The notes below the pieces were generated by a model, which made no database searches, had not been told where the DNA came from, and was given only the letters and a program-made list of their open reading frames with translations. A stretch of DNA of 64,000 nucleotides, from contig NZ_ATYR01000027.1 in the NCBI RefSeq assembly GCF_000427785.1, positions 1-64,000 of the forward strand. Direction: 5' to 3'. The stretch comes from Massilia alkalitolerans DSM 17462 (GTDB lineage Bacteria > Pseudomonadota > Gammaproteobacteria > Burkholderiales > Burkholderiaceae_D). Of this stretch, positions 33,864-38,811 are shown piece by piece (the first letter of the stretch is position 1; every line of letters begins with the position of its first letter). A program made the position numbers and the translations under genes.

Positions 33864-33966
33864 CGTAGGGTGGACGGCTCTGCCGTCCGCGCGTTCAACT
33901 CACGGCCGCGCTGTGGTAACGCATAATCTAGCTGGACGCGCGGACGGCGAAGCCGTCCACCCTACG
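33864..33966. repeat. GTAGGGTGG palindromic repeat, 103-bp copy
   Basis: The outer arms CGTAGGGTGGACGGCT and AGCCGTCCACCCTACG are perfect 16-bp inverted repeats. Each arm folds on itself (GGACGGC...GCCGTCC). The variant base pair is A:T here. The inner segment GCGCGTTCAACTCACGG is identical in the half copy at 55139. The right end supplies the msrQ stop codon. Confidence 0.85.
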
Positions 33967-34588
33967 TTACTGCGGCTTTCTGCGTTTTCTTCGCCGCGCT
34001 CCAGTACACGCGCAATCCCAGCAGCGCCGCCACGATCACACCAAAAATGATCGGCTCCTGGAAGTCGTTCTTCCCCGCCTTCATCCACCAGAAATGCAGG
34101 ATGCCCAGCGGCGCCACCACGTAGATCAGGCGGTGCAGCCACTGCCAGCGCTTGCCGCCCAGCCGCCTGATCATCGCATTGGTGCTGGTCGCCGCCAGCG
34201 GAATCAGCAGCACGAAGGCGATGAAGCCCACCGTGATGAAGGGCCGTTTCACGACGTCCTTGAGCATCCCTGCGACGTCGAAGAAGTGATCGAACCAGAA
34301 GAAGCAGGTGAAGTGCAGCAGCGCGTAGAAGAAGGCGAACAGCCCCAGCATGCGCCGCAGCCGCACTACCCAGTTCCAGCCCGTGAAGCGGCGCAGCGGG
34401 GTCACGGCCAGCGTGATGCACAGGAAGTACAGGGTCCAGTCGCCGGTGCCGCGCGTGAGGAATTCGAGCGGCTCGACCGGCACGCCCTGGAATACCAGCC
34501 AGGCCATGCGCAGAAAAGGCAGCAGCGCCAGCACGAACACCACCGCCTTGATCGTGCCGACCTGCTTGTTGGACGGAGTGAACGCCAT
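33962..34588 (-). CDS. msrQ: MsrQ, heme-binding membrane subunit of the periplasmic methionine sulfoxide reductase
   Basis: This 208-residue inner-membrane b-type cytochrome of the ferric-reductase-like family has about six helices. His residues in the helices (YALLHFTCFFWFDH and WLHRLIYVVAPLGILHF) are heme ligand candidates. It passes quinone electrons to MsrP. It overlaps the msrP stop by 1 nt (TGATG, 34586-34590). Its stop TAG (33962-33964) is part of a dispersed palindromic repeat, so the tail KKTQKAAVT may be altered relative to relatives. Confidence 0.93.
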   Translation of the reverse strand: MAFTPSNKQVGTIKAVVFVLALLPFLRMAWLVFQGVPVEPLEFLTRGTGDWTLYFLCITLAVTPLRRFTGWNWVVRLRRMLGLFAFFYALLHFTCFFWFDHFFDVAGMLKDVVKRPFITVGFIAFVLLIPLAATSTNAMIRRLGGKRWQWLHRLIYVVAPLGILHFWWMKAGKNDFQEPIIFGVIVAALLGLRVYWSAAKKTQKAAVT

Positions 34589-35559
34589 CAGTAGAACTTC
34601 TTCAGGTCCATGCCGCTGTACAGCGAGGCGACCTGGTCATAGCCGTTGAACATCAGGGTCTTGCGCTTGCGCTGGAAGAAACCGTCCTCGCCGATGCGGC
34701 GCTCGGTGGCCTGCGACCAGCGCGGGTGGTCCACGTTCGGGTTCACGTTCGAATAAAAACCGTATTCGCTCGGCGCCGAATCGTTCCAGGCGGTGCGCGG
34801 CTGGCGGCTCACCAGGCGGATCCGGACGATCGACTTGGCCGACTTGAAGCCGTACTTCCAGGGCACGATCAGGCGCACCGGCGCGCCGTTCTGGTTCGGC
34901 AGCACCTGGCCGTACATGCCCACGGTGAGCAGCGTGAGCGGATGCATGGCCTCGTCCATGCGCAGGCCTTCCACATAGGGCCAGTCGAGCACGCCGCTGC
35001 GCAGGCCCGGCATCTGCTTGCGGTCGGCCAGGGTGGTGAACTCGACGTACTTGGCATTGGCCGTCGGCTCGACCTGCTTGAGCAGGTTCGACAGCGAATA
35101 GCCGACCCAGGGAATCACCATCGACCAGCCCTCGACGCAGCGCAGGCGGTAGACGCGCTCTTCCAGCGGCGCCAGCTTGAGGATGCGGTCGATGTCGAGC
35201 GTGACCGGCTTTTTCACCTCGCCCTCGATCGTCACCGTCCACGGCCGGGTGCGCAGGCTGTGCGCGTTCTCGACCGGGTCACCCTTGTCGGTGCCGAATT
35301 CGTAGAAGTTGTTGTACGAGCTGGCGTCCTTGAACGAGGTCTGCTGTTCCTGCGTCGACAGGGCCGCGTTGCGGGTGGCGGCGAGCTTCACGCCTTGTGC
35401 GAAGGCCTCGCGGTTGGCCATCTCCCAGATACCGCTGCCCACGGCTGCCGTGGCGGCGATACGGGCGATGAACTGGCGCCGGCCTTCGTAGACTTCGCGC
35501 GGCGTGATCTCGGACGGATACGGGAGGTCGATCCCGTTCGGACTGCGTTTGAAAAGCAT
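34588..35559 (-). CDS. msrP: MsrP, molybdopterin periplasmic methionine sulfoxide reductase catalytic subunit
   Basis: This 323-residue protein has a Tat signal ([15 protein letters not shown], Arg27-Arg28) and the sulfite-oxidase-type Moco fold. The molybdenum ligand Cys141 is in [15 protein letters not shown]. It reduces protein-bound methionine sulfoxide in the periplasm after hypochlorite-type damage, with MsrQ as partner. ATG 35559 ([20 protein letters not shown]) has GCGGAG upstream. The sensor kinase gene lies 131 bp upstream on the same strand, so the whole set may be one transcript. Confidence 0.95.
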
Positions 35560-35690
35560 GGCTGACTCCGCTACAGAGAGAGACTTCAGGTTACACCAGA
35601 CGGCTTGGGCGCACGTTAGCGCCGGCTGCCGTCCGGCAAGGATGGGGCCCGGCACGCTGGACAAAAGCGCGTCAGGCCCCGCCCGGCGCC

Positions 35691-37079
35691 CTACCCGGTG
35701 GGAAAGGCGAGGATGAAACGGGTGTCGGGACCGTTCGACTGCACGATCGCTTTGCCGCCGTGCAGGTTCAAGATGGCGCTGACGATGGACAGGCCCAGTC
35801 CCGTCGAGCCTTCCGCATCGCTGCGGGCGCTGTCGGCGCGGTAGAAGCGGTCGAACAAATGGTCCAGGTGCTCGCGTGGAATCGCCGCGCCCACGTTGCT
35901 CACGCTCAGCTCCAGCATGCCGGGGCGCGGTTCGGCATGCAGCGTGATGGTGCTGCCCGCCTCCGCATGGCGCACCGCGTTCGAGACCAGGTTGGCCAGT
36001 GCCCGCCGCACCAGCGCCGGATCGGCGGCGAAGCGCCCTTCCCCGCTGCAGCGCAGGCGCAGGCCGCGTTCCTCGGCCATGCCTTCGAAGAAATCCGCCA
36101 CCCGCTCCAGTTCGTCCAGCGCCACCAGCGGTTGGCGCGCCAGTACCACTTCGTCCTGGCCGGCGCGGGCGAGGAACAGCATGCTCTCGATCATGCGCGC
36201 CAGGCGCTCAAGCTCCTCGATGTTCGAGGCCAGCAGGGTTTCGTATTCTTCGCGGCTGCGGCCCTGCCCGAGCGCGACCTGGCTTTGCCCGATCATGTTC
36301 GTCACCGGCGTCCTGAACTCGTGCGCCAGGTCGGCCGAGAAGCCGGACAGGCGCGCATAGCCGTCCTGCAGGCGTTGCAGCATGGCGTTGAAAGCATCGA
36401 TCAGCGGCCGCAGCTCGGACGGCGCGGCGCCGATGTCGAGGCGTTGCGCCAGCGTGCCCGGCTTGATGAGCGCCGCATGCTCGGCGACCGTGCGCAGGGG
36501 ACGCAGGCCGCGGCGCAGCATCAGGGCCGCCAGCGCGGCAGCCAGCAGGGCGCCGACCGCGCAGGCGGCCAGGATACGGGCGCGGTAGCGCGCGAACATG
36601 GCGGTGCGTTCGGCATAGGCGCGCGCCACCACCACCGTCACCCCGTTCGCGCCCAGGCGGGCGCTGCCCGCGACCACCCGGCCGGGCGTGCCGTCCTGCG
36701 CCGTCCAGGCGGCGATGGCGTCCCGGCCCGGCGCCGGCCCGGCCTCCGGCGGCACGGGATAGCGTTCGCCACGCGGGTTGATGTCGGCCAGCACCGCGCC
36801 GCTCGGCGCGACGATGCGCACCAGCGAGTTCTCCTGGCCGCTCATGGTGTCGCGGAAAAAATCGGGCTGTGCCGCCAGCAGTTCGGCCGCACCCGGACGG
36901 CCGAGCACGACCTGCACCTGGCGCAGCTTGCCCAGCAATTGCAGGTCGTCGCGGCGCGCGATCTCGGCCACGAAGGCGCGGTACAGGTAGATGCCCAGGC
37001 CCGCCGCGGTAAGCGCGACGATCAGCACGAAGGCGAGCGTCACGCGCAGGGTCAGGGAATCGCGCCAGGAGGGTTTCAT
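35691..37079 (-). CDS. HprS/CusS-like sensor histidine kinase
   Basis: This is a 462-residue two-TM kinase with helices at about 10-32 and 168-188. A periplasmic sensor (about 33-165) is followed by HAMP (about 188-240). The DHp domain has phospho-acceptor His253 ([12 protein letters not shown]), and HATPase_c carries N, G1 and G2 boxes ([20 protein letters not shown]). It belongs to the heavy-metal sensor group that includes CusS, CopS and HprS. Being beside msrPQ and hiuH points to HprS, which senses H2O2/HOCl. It is coupled to the regulator by ATGA (37076-37079). No Met- or Cys-rich metal site is obvious in the sensor. Confidence 0.85.
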
Positions 37080-37762
37080 GCCGGGGCCTGCGCCTCGCAG
37101 ACGTAGCCCATGCCGCGCCGGGTATGGATCAGTTTCTGCGTGAAGGGGTCGTCGATCTTGCGCCGCAGGCGGCGCACGGCGGCATCGATGACGTTGGTAT
37201 CGCTGTCGAAATTCATGTCCCAGACCTGGGACGCGATCAGGGCGCGCGACAGCACCTGGCCCTGGCGCCGCGCCAGCAGGTGCAGCAGCGCGAACTCCTG
37301 GGCCGTGAGCGCGATGGTCTCGGCGCCGCGCCGCACGCGGCGGCGCAGCACGTCGATCTCGAGGTCGGCGATGCGGATCAGTTCTTCCTCGCGCACCGGT
37401 CCGCGCCGCAGCAGGGTGCGGATGCGCGCCACCAGCTCGACAAACGCGAAAGGCTTGACCAGGTAGTCGTCGGCGCCCAGTTCCAGCCCGCGCACGCGGT
37501 CTTCGACCTCGTCGCGCGCCGTCAGGAACAGCACCGGGATCTGTTCGGTAGCCGGGTCGGCGCGCAGGGCGGCGAGCACCTGCCAGCCATCCATGCGCGG
37601 CAGCATCACGTCCAGCACCACCAGCTCGATCTCTTCCTCGCGGGCGATGGCCAGGCCGTCGCGGCCATTGCGCGCGAGCCGCACCGCGAAGCCCGACTCG
37701 GCCAGGCCGCGCTGGAGGTAATCGCCGGTCTTCGGCTCGTCTTCGATCACAAGGATGCTCAT
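37076..37762 (-). CDS. HprR/CusR-like OmpR-family response regulator
   Basis: This 228-residue protein has a receiver domain (phospho-acceptor Asp51 in [11 protein letters not shown], Lys in VKPFAF) and a winged-helix DNA-binding domain (about 130-225, ending [10 protein letters not shown]). It is the heavy-metal/HprR subgroup of OmpR regulators. A palindrome ATGAC-N6-GTCAT just upstream (37797-37812) matches the half-site pattern bound by CusR and HprR in E. coli. It is divergent from the GlcG-like and hiuH genes. Confidence 0.87.
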
Positions 37763-37796
37763 GACCGCATTCTATGCCGAAGGGATGCGTCCAAAC

Positions 37797-37812
37797 ATGA
37801 CGAAACTGTCAT
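37797..37812. promoter_or_regulatory. Candidate HprR/CusR-type operator
   Basis: ATGAC-GAAACT-GTCAT has 5-bp inverted half-sites with a 6-bp spacer. It sits between the divergent regulator gene (start 37762) and the GlcG-like gene (start 37880), so it could control both directions. Confidence 0.55.
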
Positions 37813-37879
37813 CTGGCGGTCAGCCTGGCGTCGCCGGGCGCATGACAAGATGGCGGCCATCCCATGTCGAAGGAAGACC

Positions 37880-38371
37880 ATGTCCAGAAATCTCATCATG
37901 CTTCTCGCTGCGCTGGCCGCAGCGCCGGCCGGCGCACAGCTGCGCCAGCAGCCGGCACTCGGCCTGGAAGCGGCCAAGCGCCTGGCGGAGCGCGCCATCC
38001 AGTCCTGCCGCAGTGAAGGCCGCGCGATCGTCGTGGCCGTGGTCGACCAGGGCGGCAACCTTGTGACCCTGCAGCGCGACGACGGCGTCGGCCCGCACAA
38101 CACCGAGGCCAGCCGGCGCAAGGCCTATACCGCGCTGTCGACGCGCAAGCCGACGCTGCTGCTGGCGCGCGACGCGCAGGCCACTCCTGACACGCGCAAC
38201 CTGGCCACCCTGCCCGAACTCCTGCTGCTCGGCGGGGGCGTACCGCTGCTGGCGCAGAAGCAGGTCGTCGGCGCCATCGGCGTGGCCGGTGGCGGCGGGC
38301 CGCAGAACGACCATGCCTGCGCGGAGCGCGCCATCGGCGCCGTGCCCGAGCTCGACCAACCCATCCCTTGA
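37880..38371 (+). CDS. Exported GlcG/HbpS-like heme-binding family protein (DUF336)
   Basis: This is a 163-residue protein with a signal peptide (residues 1-19, cleaved after AGA) and the GlcG/HbpS fold (PF03928). Signs are LEAAKRLAERAIQSC, VVAVVDQGGNLVTLQRDD, TEASRRKAYTA and VVGAIGVAGGGG. Relatives bind heme or act as redox-linked accessory proteins (HbpS with the SenS kinase); enzymatic activity is not established. It has AAGGAAG upstream of its ATG and ends 29 bp before hiuH. It is divergent from the HprR-like regulator and shares the candidate operator. Confidence 0.8.
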   Translation: MSRNLIMLLAALAAAPAGAQLRQQPALGLEAAKRLAERAIQSCRSEGRAIVVAVVDQGGNLVTLQRDDGVGPHNTEASRRKAYTALSTRKPTLLLARDAQATPDTRNLATLPELLLLGGGVPLLAQKQVVGAIGVAGGGGPQNDHACAERAIGAVPELDQPIP

Positions 38372-38400
38372 CTATTTTTGCCTTAACTTAGGAGAACGCC

Positions 38401-38811
38401 ATGCAAACCATCCACCGACTCGCCCTTGCCAGCCTGCTGGGCTTCGCCAGCCTCGCGGCAAGCGCCGCACAGAATCCGCTCAGCGTGCACGTGCTCGACC
38501 TGCAGAGCGGCCAACCCACCGCAGGCATCGAGGTTACGCTGGAACAGCGCGCAGGCAGCGGGTGGCGCGAACTGGCGCGCGGCATCACCAACGCGCAGGG
38601 ACGCATCCCTGCCCTGTATCCGGAAGACACGCCGATGAAGCCGGCCGACTACCGCATCGTGTTCAAGACCGGCGAACACTACAAGCGCAAGGGACAGGCC
38701 AGCTTCTTCCCGCAGATTCCGGTCGAGTTCACCGTGAATGCGCCGGCCCAGCACTACCATGTGCCCCTGCTGCTGAGCCCCTTCGGCTACTCGACCTACC
38801 GGGGCAACTAA
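38401..38811 (+). CDS. hiuH: 5-hydroxyisourate hydrolase (transthyretin-like protein), exported
   Basis: This is a 136-residue transthyretin-like hydrolase with a signal peptide (residues 1-22). The active-site His30 (SVHVLD), the HYHVPLLLSP His and the C-terminal YRGN (YRGS in most) are present. It splits 5-hydroxyisourate from the uric acid pathway. AGGAG is 7 bp upstream. In E. coli the periplasmic HiuH is encoded with msrPQ and is regulated by HprSR, so the gene's place here fits an oxidative-stress rather than purine role. Confidence 0.92.
   Translation: MQTIHRLALASLLGFASLAASAAQNPLSVHVLDLQSGQPTAGIEVTLEQRAGSGWRELARGITNAQGRIPALYPEDTPMKPADYRIVFKTGEHYKRKGQASFFPQIPVEFTVNAPAQHYHVPLLLSPFGYSTYRGN

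What the first reader, a model, noticed from the sequence alone, without database searches (positions are those of the whole stretch)
33962..38811. MsrPQ, HprSR-like kinase/regulator, GlcG-like protein and HiuH in one island
E. coli carries hiuH-msrPQ next to hprRS, which answers to hydrogen peroxide and hypochlorous acid. Here the same functions are grouped in a different order: hprR-hprS-msrP-msrQ on one strand, and a GlcG/HbpS-like gene with hiuH on the other. The GlcG-like exported protein is an extra member that may assist sensing or heme handling. In related genomes msrPQ usually lies beside ccsB or lysA, so the kinase, regulator, GlcG-like and hiuH genes look like an inserted block.
Basis: partly seen in the sequence, partly recalled or inferred. 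Interest (0 to 1): 0.65.

Follow-up and report, generated by a model that had tools for sequence, protein, structure and literature searches.

The report
Oxidant sensor with exported HiuH–HbpS-like pair
A bacterium carries a small gene block resembling E. coli's bleach-sensing system, and one extra gene in it sits beside the gene for a periplasmic urate-breakdown enzyme in many distant bacteria, which suggests a partnership not described in the papers searched.

Summary
RR-HK / glcG-hiuH is a real module: 16 of 37 genus genomes carry it, at four or more sites, 11 with the GlcG-like gene. One insertion between ccsB and msrP (8 genomes, one clade) put msrPQ behind the kinase. The kinase keeps both periplasmic-loop methionines that align with E. 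coli HprS M72/M153 (54/54 and 50/54 rows; other kinases of the family 3/21 and 2/21). It lies apart from CusRS/SilRS. The divergent promoter has an HprR/CusR-type box. In 66 of 80 named loci, from six classes in two phyla, it sits within 1 kb of hiuH on the same strand, while the regulator differs: HprRS-type in beta/gamma, mostly LysR in alpha, a cNMP-binding regulator in Bacteroidota. A 2012 paper says periplasmic HiuH genes have no consensus context. The GlcG-like protein therefore most likely works with HiuH rather than being a required part of the sensor; its chemistry is unknown. msrPQ keeps its own promoter-like element, so control by the module is plausible, not shown. No expression data were available.

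The parts
33962..34588 (-). msrQ, heme-binding membrane subunit
   Evidence: NF003831 164.6 bits, cut-off 130; PF01794
34588..35559 (-). msrP, methionine sulfoxide reductase catalytic subunit; likely ATG start at 35559 (a longer frame runs from a TTG at 35664)
   Evidence: NF003767 495.5 bits, cut-off 207; start by comparison with relatives
35584..35619 (-). promoter-like element of msrP (CTAACG ... GTGTAA), shared with genomes that lack the insertion
   Evidence: seen by eye in printed upstream sequences
35691..37079 (-). HprS-type sensor histidine kinase; M79 and M161 align with HprS M72 and M153, C173 with C165
   Evidence: TIGR01386 455.2 bits; tree; residues
37076..37762 (-). OmpR-type response regulator of the HprR/CusR group
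   Evidence: TIGR01387 333.9 bits; PF00072 and PF00486
37797..37822 (+). regulator box ATGAC-N6-GTCAT plus a further GTCA half-site 11 bp on
   Evidence: exact in 14 of 16 modules, once per genome; only exact match in the own genome
37880..38371 (+). exported HbpS-like protein (the 'GlcG-like' gene), partner of hiuH
   Evidence: PF03928 122.9 bits; HbpS nearest in PDB by sequence and fold; linked to hiuH in 66 of 80 loci
38401..38811 (+). hiuH, exported 5-hydroxyisourate hydrolase
   Evidence: TIGR02962 138.2 bits, cut-off 87.45; E. coli transthyretin-like protein 2igl E 3.4e-39

Best explanation
The block is an HprRS-type stress module. The kinase senses oxidants, best guess reactive chlorine species, by oxidation of two periplasmic-loop methionines (inferred from HprS). 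The phosphorylated regulator binds the box at 37797-37822 and activates both sides: its own genes, and the exported HbpS-like protein with exported HiuH. HiuH clears 5-hydroxyisourate, a reactive product of urate oxidation, in the periplasm. The HbpS-like protein acts in the same step or the next one, as a ligand-binding or catalytic partner of HiuH; it is not an obligate sensor. The module moves between lineages as a unit. In the ancestor of eight genomes it landed between ccsB and msrP, so that msrPQ can be read through from the regulator-kinase transcript. Shown: gene content, module mobility, single insertion, box, residue conservation, HiuH/HbpS-like pairing. Inferred: signal, direction of control, read-through, chemistry.
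For: Module RR-HK/(glcG)-hiuH in 16 of 37 genus genomes at four or more sites. The 8 insertion-site genomes form one clade on the flanking-gene tree (SH-aLRT 100) and on the module tree (94/85, not starred). G033 and G005 carry modules that nest with the insertion-site/site-B modules although their flanking genes place them elsewhere. Exact box in 14 of 16 modules and variants in the other two; E. coli has CATTACAAAATTGTAATG at the same place, named as the CusR/HprR box in passages of PMC9302797; pattern T[TG]AC-N6-GT[CA]A in 35 of 43 named regulator intergenics. Met column 72: 54 of 54 linked kinases; Met column 153: 50 of 54; other TIGR01386 kinases 3 and 2 of 21; CusS V/Y, SilS I/Y, PcoS M/F. 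hiuH within 1 kb on the same strand in 66 of 80 loci, in both gene orders and with different regulators; 0 of 21 paralog loci have hiuH in their 3.4-kb stretch.
Against: No expression or binding data. The regulator and kinase miss the HprR (276.3/353) and CusS (274.5/423) equivalog or subfamily cut-offs, and the CusR model scores slightly higher than the HprR model (283.0 against 276.3). E. coli HprRS joins the modules with weak support only (48/88) on a very long branch. The box is shared by the wider regulator family, including sister systems and CusR in E. coli, so it does not prove HprR identity. msrP keeps its own promoter-like element, and 7 of 8 genomes with the module elsewhere have no box pattern in 350 nt upstream of msrP. 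14 of 80 loci have the HbpS-like gene without hiuH, and in Chimaeribacter hiuH looks decayed while the HbpS-like gene stays.
Confidence: 0.62

Rival explanations
1. The HbpS-like protein is an accessory sensor of the kinase, as HbpS is for SenS in Streptomyces: it binds heme or iron, changes on oxidation and tunes the kinase.
For: Nearest solved structures are HbpS. It is exported and divergently next to a redox-type two-component system in 43 of 80 named loci. HbpS-SenS-SenR is a precedent (PMC4991794, passages).
Against: Kinase present without it in 5 of 16 genus modules and in E. coli; present with hiuH but no such system in 24 loci. The HbpS iron motifs are not kept: E78xxE81 is ExxR, D141xxE144 is Q..H; K83 and D143 are kept (motif data from PMC3754957 passages).
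Confidence: 0.2
2. msrPQ is not part of the module's regulon: the module merely landed beside it and msrPQ is still run from its own promoter.
For: Own promoter-like element kept in all 8 insertion-site genomes and resembling that of empty-site genomes. No box pattern upstream of msrP in 36 of 37 genus genomes. The ccsB-msrP interval also takes unrelated genes in 4 genomes. Only 2 of 80 named loci have msrP next door, both at this insertion site.
Against: Same strand behind the kinase in 8 of 8 insertion-site genomes, no terminator called in the gap, and an independent E. coli locus joins the same functions. G032, with the module elsewhere, has TTACAAATTTGTCA 48 nt upstream of its aligned msrP start (about 0.45 such hits expected over 37 promoters).
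Confidence: 0.35
3. It is a copper-sensing module, CusRS-like.
Against: CusR and CusS cut-offs not met; tree places CusRS/SilRS and PcoRS on the other side of a starred branch, 96/98; no cusA/B/C or pcoC/D match in the module loci that were compared with them (the plasmid-type systems did match); both sensor methionine columns differ in CusS and SilS. One planned AU test with CusRS/SilRS did not finish.
Confidence: 0.12
4. The neighbours are chance company without functional link.
For: Patchy presence; several losses of the HbpS-like gene (at least 4 changes on the module tree).
Against: 66 of 80 loci across two phyla with three kinds of regulator.
Confidence: 0.03

Closest known systems
Escherichia coli hprRS / hiuH-msrPQ
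   Same: Kinase-regulator pair divergent from hiuH, box CATTACAAAATTGTAATG in the same place, both sensor methionines aligned, msrPQ in the locus.
   Different: msrPQ lies behind the kinase instead of behind hiuH; the HbpS-like gene is added; msrPQ was joined by a separate insertion.
HbpS-SenS-SenR of Streptomyces
   Same: Exported PF03928 protein next to a redox-type two-component system; HbpS is the nearest solved structure. In S. coelicolor the system down-regulates urate degradation genes including a HIU hydrolase (PMC4991794 passages).
   Different: Iron motifs not kept; the HbpS-like gene pairs with hiuH even without a kinase. That paper says only actinobacterial hbpS genes are clustered with senS-senR.
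Periplasmic transthyretin-like protein YedX of Salmonella
   Same: Exported 5-hydroxyisourate hydrolase; its promoter overlaps that of a two-component system (PMC3528726 passages).
   Different: That paper reports no consensus genomic context for periplasmic TLP genes; here an HbpS-like partner recurs.
GlcG, EfgA, PduO C-terminal domain, NahX (other PF03928 proteins)
   Same: Same fold.
   Different: H73, N74 and S87 are invariant in the 66 HiuH-linked proteins and mostly differ in 20 paralogs; linked proteins fall in one subfamily clade, SH-aLRT 98 in a quick tree.
CusRS / SilRS / PcoRS
   Same: Same wider regulator and kinase families; CusR recognises the same kind of box.
   Different: Separate branch, no efflux genes, sensor methionine columns differ.

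Membership tests
HprRS (HprSR) | HisKA/HATPase kinase with HAMP and an OmpR-type regulator of the heavy-metal group | tested here: met
HprRS (HprSR) | NCBIfam HprR equivalog score over cut-off | tested here: not met
   276.3 against 353 bits
HprRS (HprSR) | two periplasmic-loop sensor methionines (numbers M72 and M153 recalled; a review passage confirms two loop methionines and a membrane cysteine) | tested here: met
   M79 and M161; PMC10151825 passages
HprRS (HprSR) | membrane cysteine (C165, recalled) | tested here: met
   C173 in the window; but C in only 8 of 16 genus modules and 5 of 38 named loci
HprRS (HprSR) | box between hprR and divergent hiuH | tested here: met
   box not specific to HprR
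HprRS (HprSR) | phylogenetic grouping with E. coli HprRS | tested here: inconclusive
   48/88 support, long branch
HprRS (HprSR) | activation by HOCl | not testable with these tools
   needs expression data
CusRS copper sensors | CusR and CusS model cut-offs | tested here: not met
   283.0/420 and 274.5/423
CusRS copper sensors | tree position with CusRS/SilRS | tested here: not met
   AU test with CusRS/SilRS unfinished
HbpS-SenS-SenR | exported PF03928 protein beside a two-component system | tested here: met
HbpS-SenS-SenR | D/ExxE iron motifs of HbpS | tested here: not met
   ExxR and Q..H in the alignment
HbpS-SenS-SenR | kinase of the SenS type | not tested
   no SenS sequence was compared
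5-hydroxyisourate hydrolase | TIGR02962 cut-off and alignment to E. coli TLP | tested here: met
   138.2/87.45; 2igl E 3.4e-39. The E. coli-type model NF011610 is not met, 158/217
MsrPQ | MsrP and MsrQ equivalog cut-offs | tested here: met

The most novel reading that the evidence does not exclude
The HbpS-like protein is a new functional partner of exported HiuH in a periplasmic ureide pathway: it acts directly before or after HiuH, for example on the HiuH product OHCU, or it holds the heme or metal that makes 5-hydroxyisourate. The pair is an envelope defence unit plugged into different stress regulators in different phyla, and HprRS-MsrPQ is one instance.
Probability: 0.35. Interest if true: 0.78.

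Novelty: new variant of a known kind. Interest (0 to 1): 0.6.

Why it matters
Why bacteria export a urate-pathway enzyme is an open question, and a 2012 paper reported no consensus context for its gene. A recurring partner across two phyla, under three kinds of regulator, gives a concrete handle: purify the two proteins and test them together. The sensor methionines kept in 54 of 54 and 50 of 54 linked kinases extend the methionine-based reactive-chlorine sensor hypothesis beyond E. coli to many environmental bacteria. The insertion beside msrPQ, separate from the E. coli arrangement, is a natural experiment in how a repair enzyme may be drawn into a stress regulon.

Tried and rejected
Copper-sensor reading: weighed with model cut-offs, tree and residues and judged unlikely. 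Box as proof of HprR identity: rejected, since sister systems carry one-mismatch boxes near their regulators. msrP promoter under the box in genomes with the module elsewhere: one candidate in 8, G032; an earlier count for the exact TGAC form gave none.

Class-wide search for the hiuH protein: 2 of 229 genomes at E 1e-25, one of them the own genome; too sparse to use. Paper search for the sensor residue numbers found nothing useful, so M72, M153 and C165 are recalled. Haloferax papers that share words with this question were opened by passages and are unrelated; so is an E. coli biofilm paper that names both hiuH and glcG as separate regulated genes.

Absence in print: searches and 60 of an open-access library found no paper that links hiuH with a GlcG/HbpS-like neighbour; subscription papers were mostly not searchable.

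Counting notes: five named loci (L194, L206, L237, L240, L257) have the contig lengths of G015, G009, G025, G028 and G007, so the 54 kinase rows are probably 49 genomes. 38 of 43 kinases from named two-component loci were long enough to align. The 80 loci are the best 80 of 250 confirmed relatives, themselves from a capped list of 594 stretches, so 66 of 80 describes the nearest relatives only.
Full report
Observation. On the minus strand lie msrQ, msrP, a heavy-metal-type histidine kinase and an OmpR-type regulator; on the plus strand an exported PF03928 protein and an exported 5-hydroxyisourate hydrolase; lysA and ccsB flank the block. The msrP start is probably the ATG near 35559.

Synteny. 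I compared 37 genus genomes (the window's own plus 36). ccsB is next to msrP with at most 163 bp between them in 25, this module lies between them in 8, and unrelated genes in 4 (the other genes include a LysR regulator, a short-chain dehydrogenase and an ECF sigma factor). The module, regulator-kinase divergent from (glcG)-hiuH, is present in 16 of 37. In 8 it lies elsewhere: four share one site, G033 and G025 have flanks that match neither that site nor each other, and G005 and G032 were not compared for flanks. The output was cut in the middle. The 8 insertion-site genomes form one clade on a tree of ccsB, msrP, msrQ and lysA (SH-aLRT 100, quick method) and on the kinase-plus-regulator tree (94/85, below the starred level). 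Module presence needs 7 changes on the flanking-gene tree, and the G033 and G005 modules nest with others' modules although their flanking genes do not. The simplest account is a mobile module with one insertion upstream of msrPQ.

Which kind of two-component system. The module systems fall into a clade of 14 (100/100) and a pair, G025 and G032 (100/99). E. coli HprRS joins them weakly (48/88) on a long branch; CusRS, SilRS and PcoRS fall on the other side of a starred branch (96/98). Holding HprRS with CusRS and SilRS is rejected at p 0.021; holding all 16 modules as one clade is not rejected (p 0.40); a fourth test did not finish. Model scores are ambiguous: neither the HprR nor the CusR cut-off is met, and CusR scores slightly higher. 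The sharper evidence is in the sensor loop. The column of HprS M72 is methionine in 54 of 54 linked kinases and that of M153 in 50 of 54 (exceptions L195, L230, L256, G033); in 21 other family kinases the figures are 3 and 2; CusS and SilS have neither, PcoS one. The residue numbers are recalled from El Hajj 2022, which was not held; review passages confirm two periplasmic-loop methionines and a membrane cysteine. Five of the 54 rows repeat genomes.

Promoter. All 14 modules of the main group plus G025's have, in fact, the same box: 14 of 16 modules carry exact ATGAC-N6-GTCAT (including G025), while G005 and G032 have variants. Further GTCA-like half-sites follow at 11-bp steps. E. coli has CATTACAAAATTGTAATG with a further GTAA at the same step, which PMC9302797 names as the CusR and HprR box (passages). 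In 61 genomes the fuller pattern occurs without mismatch once in each of 14 module genomes and nowhere else; with one mismatch also in G012 and G029; the reversed control gave none. With the TCTGG part relaxed, the own genome has one exact match, this one, and one with a mismatch, against one control hit. Of 43 regulator intergenics in named loci 35 hold T[TG]AC-N6-GT[CA]A; in seven of the other eight I see a near variant by eye, in L230 only half-sites.

msrPQ. It lies on the same strand behind the kinase in 8 of 8 insertion-site genomes and no terminator was called in the gap (terminator calls in the region were no more than in shuffles). But it keeps a promoter-like element seen also in empty-site genomes (by eye). 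Among 37 msrP upstream regions only G032, whose module is elsewhere, holds the box pattern (TTACAAATTTGTCA, 48 nt before the aligned start; about 0.45 hits expected in all). Capture by read-through is plausible and unproven.

The HbpS-like protein. A scan of named genomes with an alignment of 8 sequences returned 80 loci. hiuH lies within 1 kb on the same strand in 66: Beta 22 of 26, Gamma 21 of 26, Alpha 10 of 12, Flavobacteriia 9 of 12, Sphingobacteriia 2 of 2, Cytophagia 2 of 2; 26 named genera. Order varies: glcG-hiuH in Beta, most Gamma and Bacteroidota; hiuH-glcG in Alpha and Enterobacterales loci. The regulator differs: HprRS-type system in 42 linked Beta/Gamma loci; a LysR-type gene in 8 of 10 linked Alpha loci, not always immediately adjacent; a cNMP-binding regulator in 12 of 13 linked Bacteroidota loci (Pfam on two representatives of each). 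In 6 Alpha loci an amidohydrolase-family gene stands beside the pair (Pfam on one). msrP is adjacent in only 2 of 80, both at the insertion site studied here. As control, 21 paralog loci hold no hiuH. The exported nature of HiuH and of the HbpS-like protein is judged from N-termini. Nine of the 14 unlinked loci fall inside the linked subfamily clade, five outside. Within the 80, H73 is invariant; C43 and C147 occur together in 64 of 64 Pseudomonadota and are both replaced in 16 of 16 Bacteroidota, which fits a disulfide but is one phylogenetic contrast. The predicted fold is confident (pLDDT 91.5, pTM 0.82) and nearest to HbpS (3fpw, E 1.5e-12). The invariant H73, A77, K81, T84 and neighbours line up along the predicted helix 73-88, which suggests a functional face (inference).

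Mechanism. HiuH hydrolyses 5-hydroxyisourate, which otherwise decays with radical adducts (PMC3528726 passages). Oxidants in the envelope would both make this compound from urate and oxidise methionines, so one sensor driving HiuH and, where linked, MsrPQ makes sense. The HbpS-like protein travels with HiuH under three kinds of regulator and is dispensable to the kinase, so I place it with HiuH; whether as enzyme, ligand or heme/metal binder is open. The Streptomyces HbpS system also controls urate degradation genes, with opposite sign (PMC4991794 passages).

Novelty. A 2012 paper states that periplasmic TLP genes lack a consensus context, and a 2016 paper that only actinobacterial hbpS genes cluster with senS-senR. 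My searches found no paper on the pairing, within an open-access library only.

Noticed in passing
L174-L183, L192 (11 genus genomes): A sister two-component system (regulator 66-72%, kinase 40-45% identical to the window's) without hiuH, the HbpS-like gene, cus or pco matches in the fetched 10-12 kb; its targets were not identified.
   Followed up: partly
window 35659-35674, minus strand: TGAC[AG]CGC[AT]TTTGTCC just behind the kinase stop, alike in 7 of 8 insertion-site genomes and not seen behind the kinase in the other modules printed; unexplained.
   Followed up: no
L081 (G032), upstream of msrP: A box-like TTACAAATTTGTCA in the msrP promoter of a genome whose module lies elsewhere; possible control in trans.
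   Followed up: partly
L071, L073, L074, L093: The ccsB-msrP interval holds other inserted genes in G004, G034, G020 and G024, so it may be a permissive site.
   Followed up: partly
L232 3896-5170 and five other alphaproteobacterial loci: An amidohydrolase-family gene next to hiuH and the HbpS-like gene, in keeping with a cyclic-amide pathway.
   Followed up: partly
L195 5763-5981 (Chimaeribacter): Weak hiuH-like remnant between hprR and the HbpS-like gene (E 0.1-0.2): hiuH seems lost while its neighbours stay.
   Followed up: no
L126 (G012), L127 (G029): One-mismatch boxes in genomes without the module; neighbouring genes not identified.
   Followed up: no
G000:C4:107739-108098: A second HiuH, 34% identical, in the own genome; each of the 37 genus genomes has such a 33-44% relative, probably the purine-pathway enzyme.
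   Followed up: no
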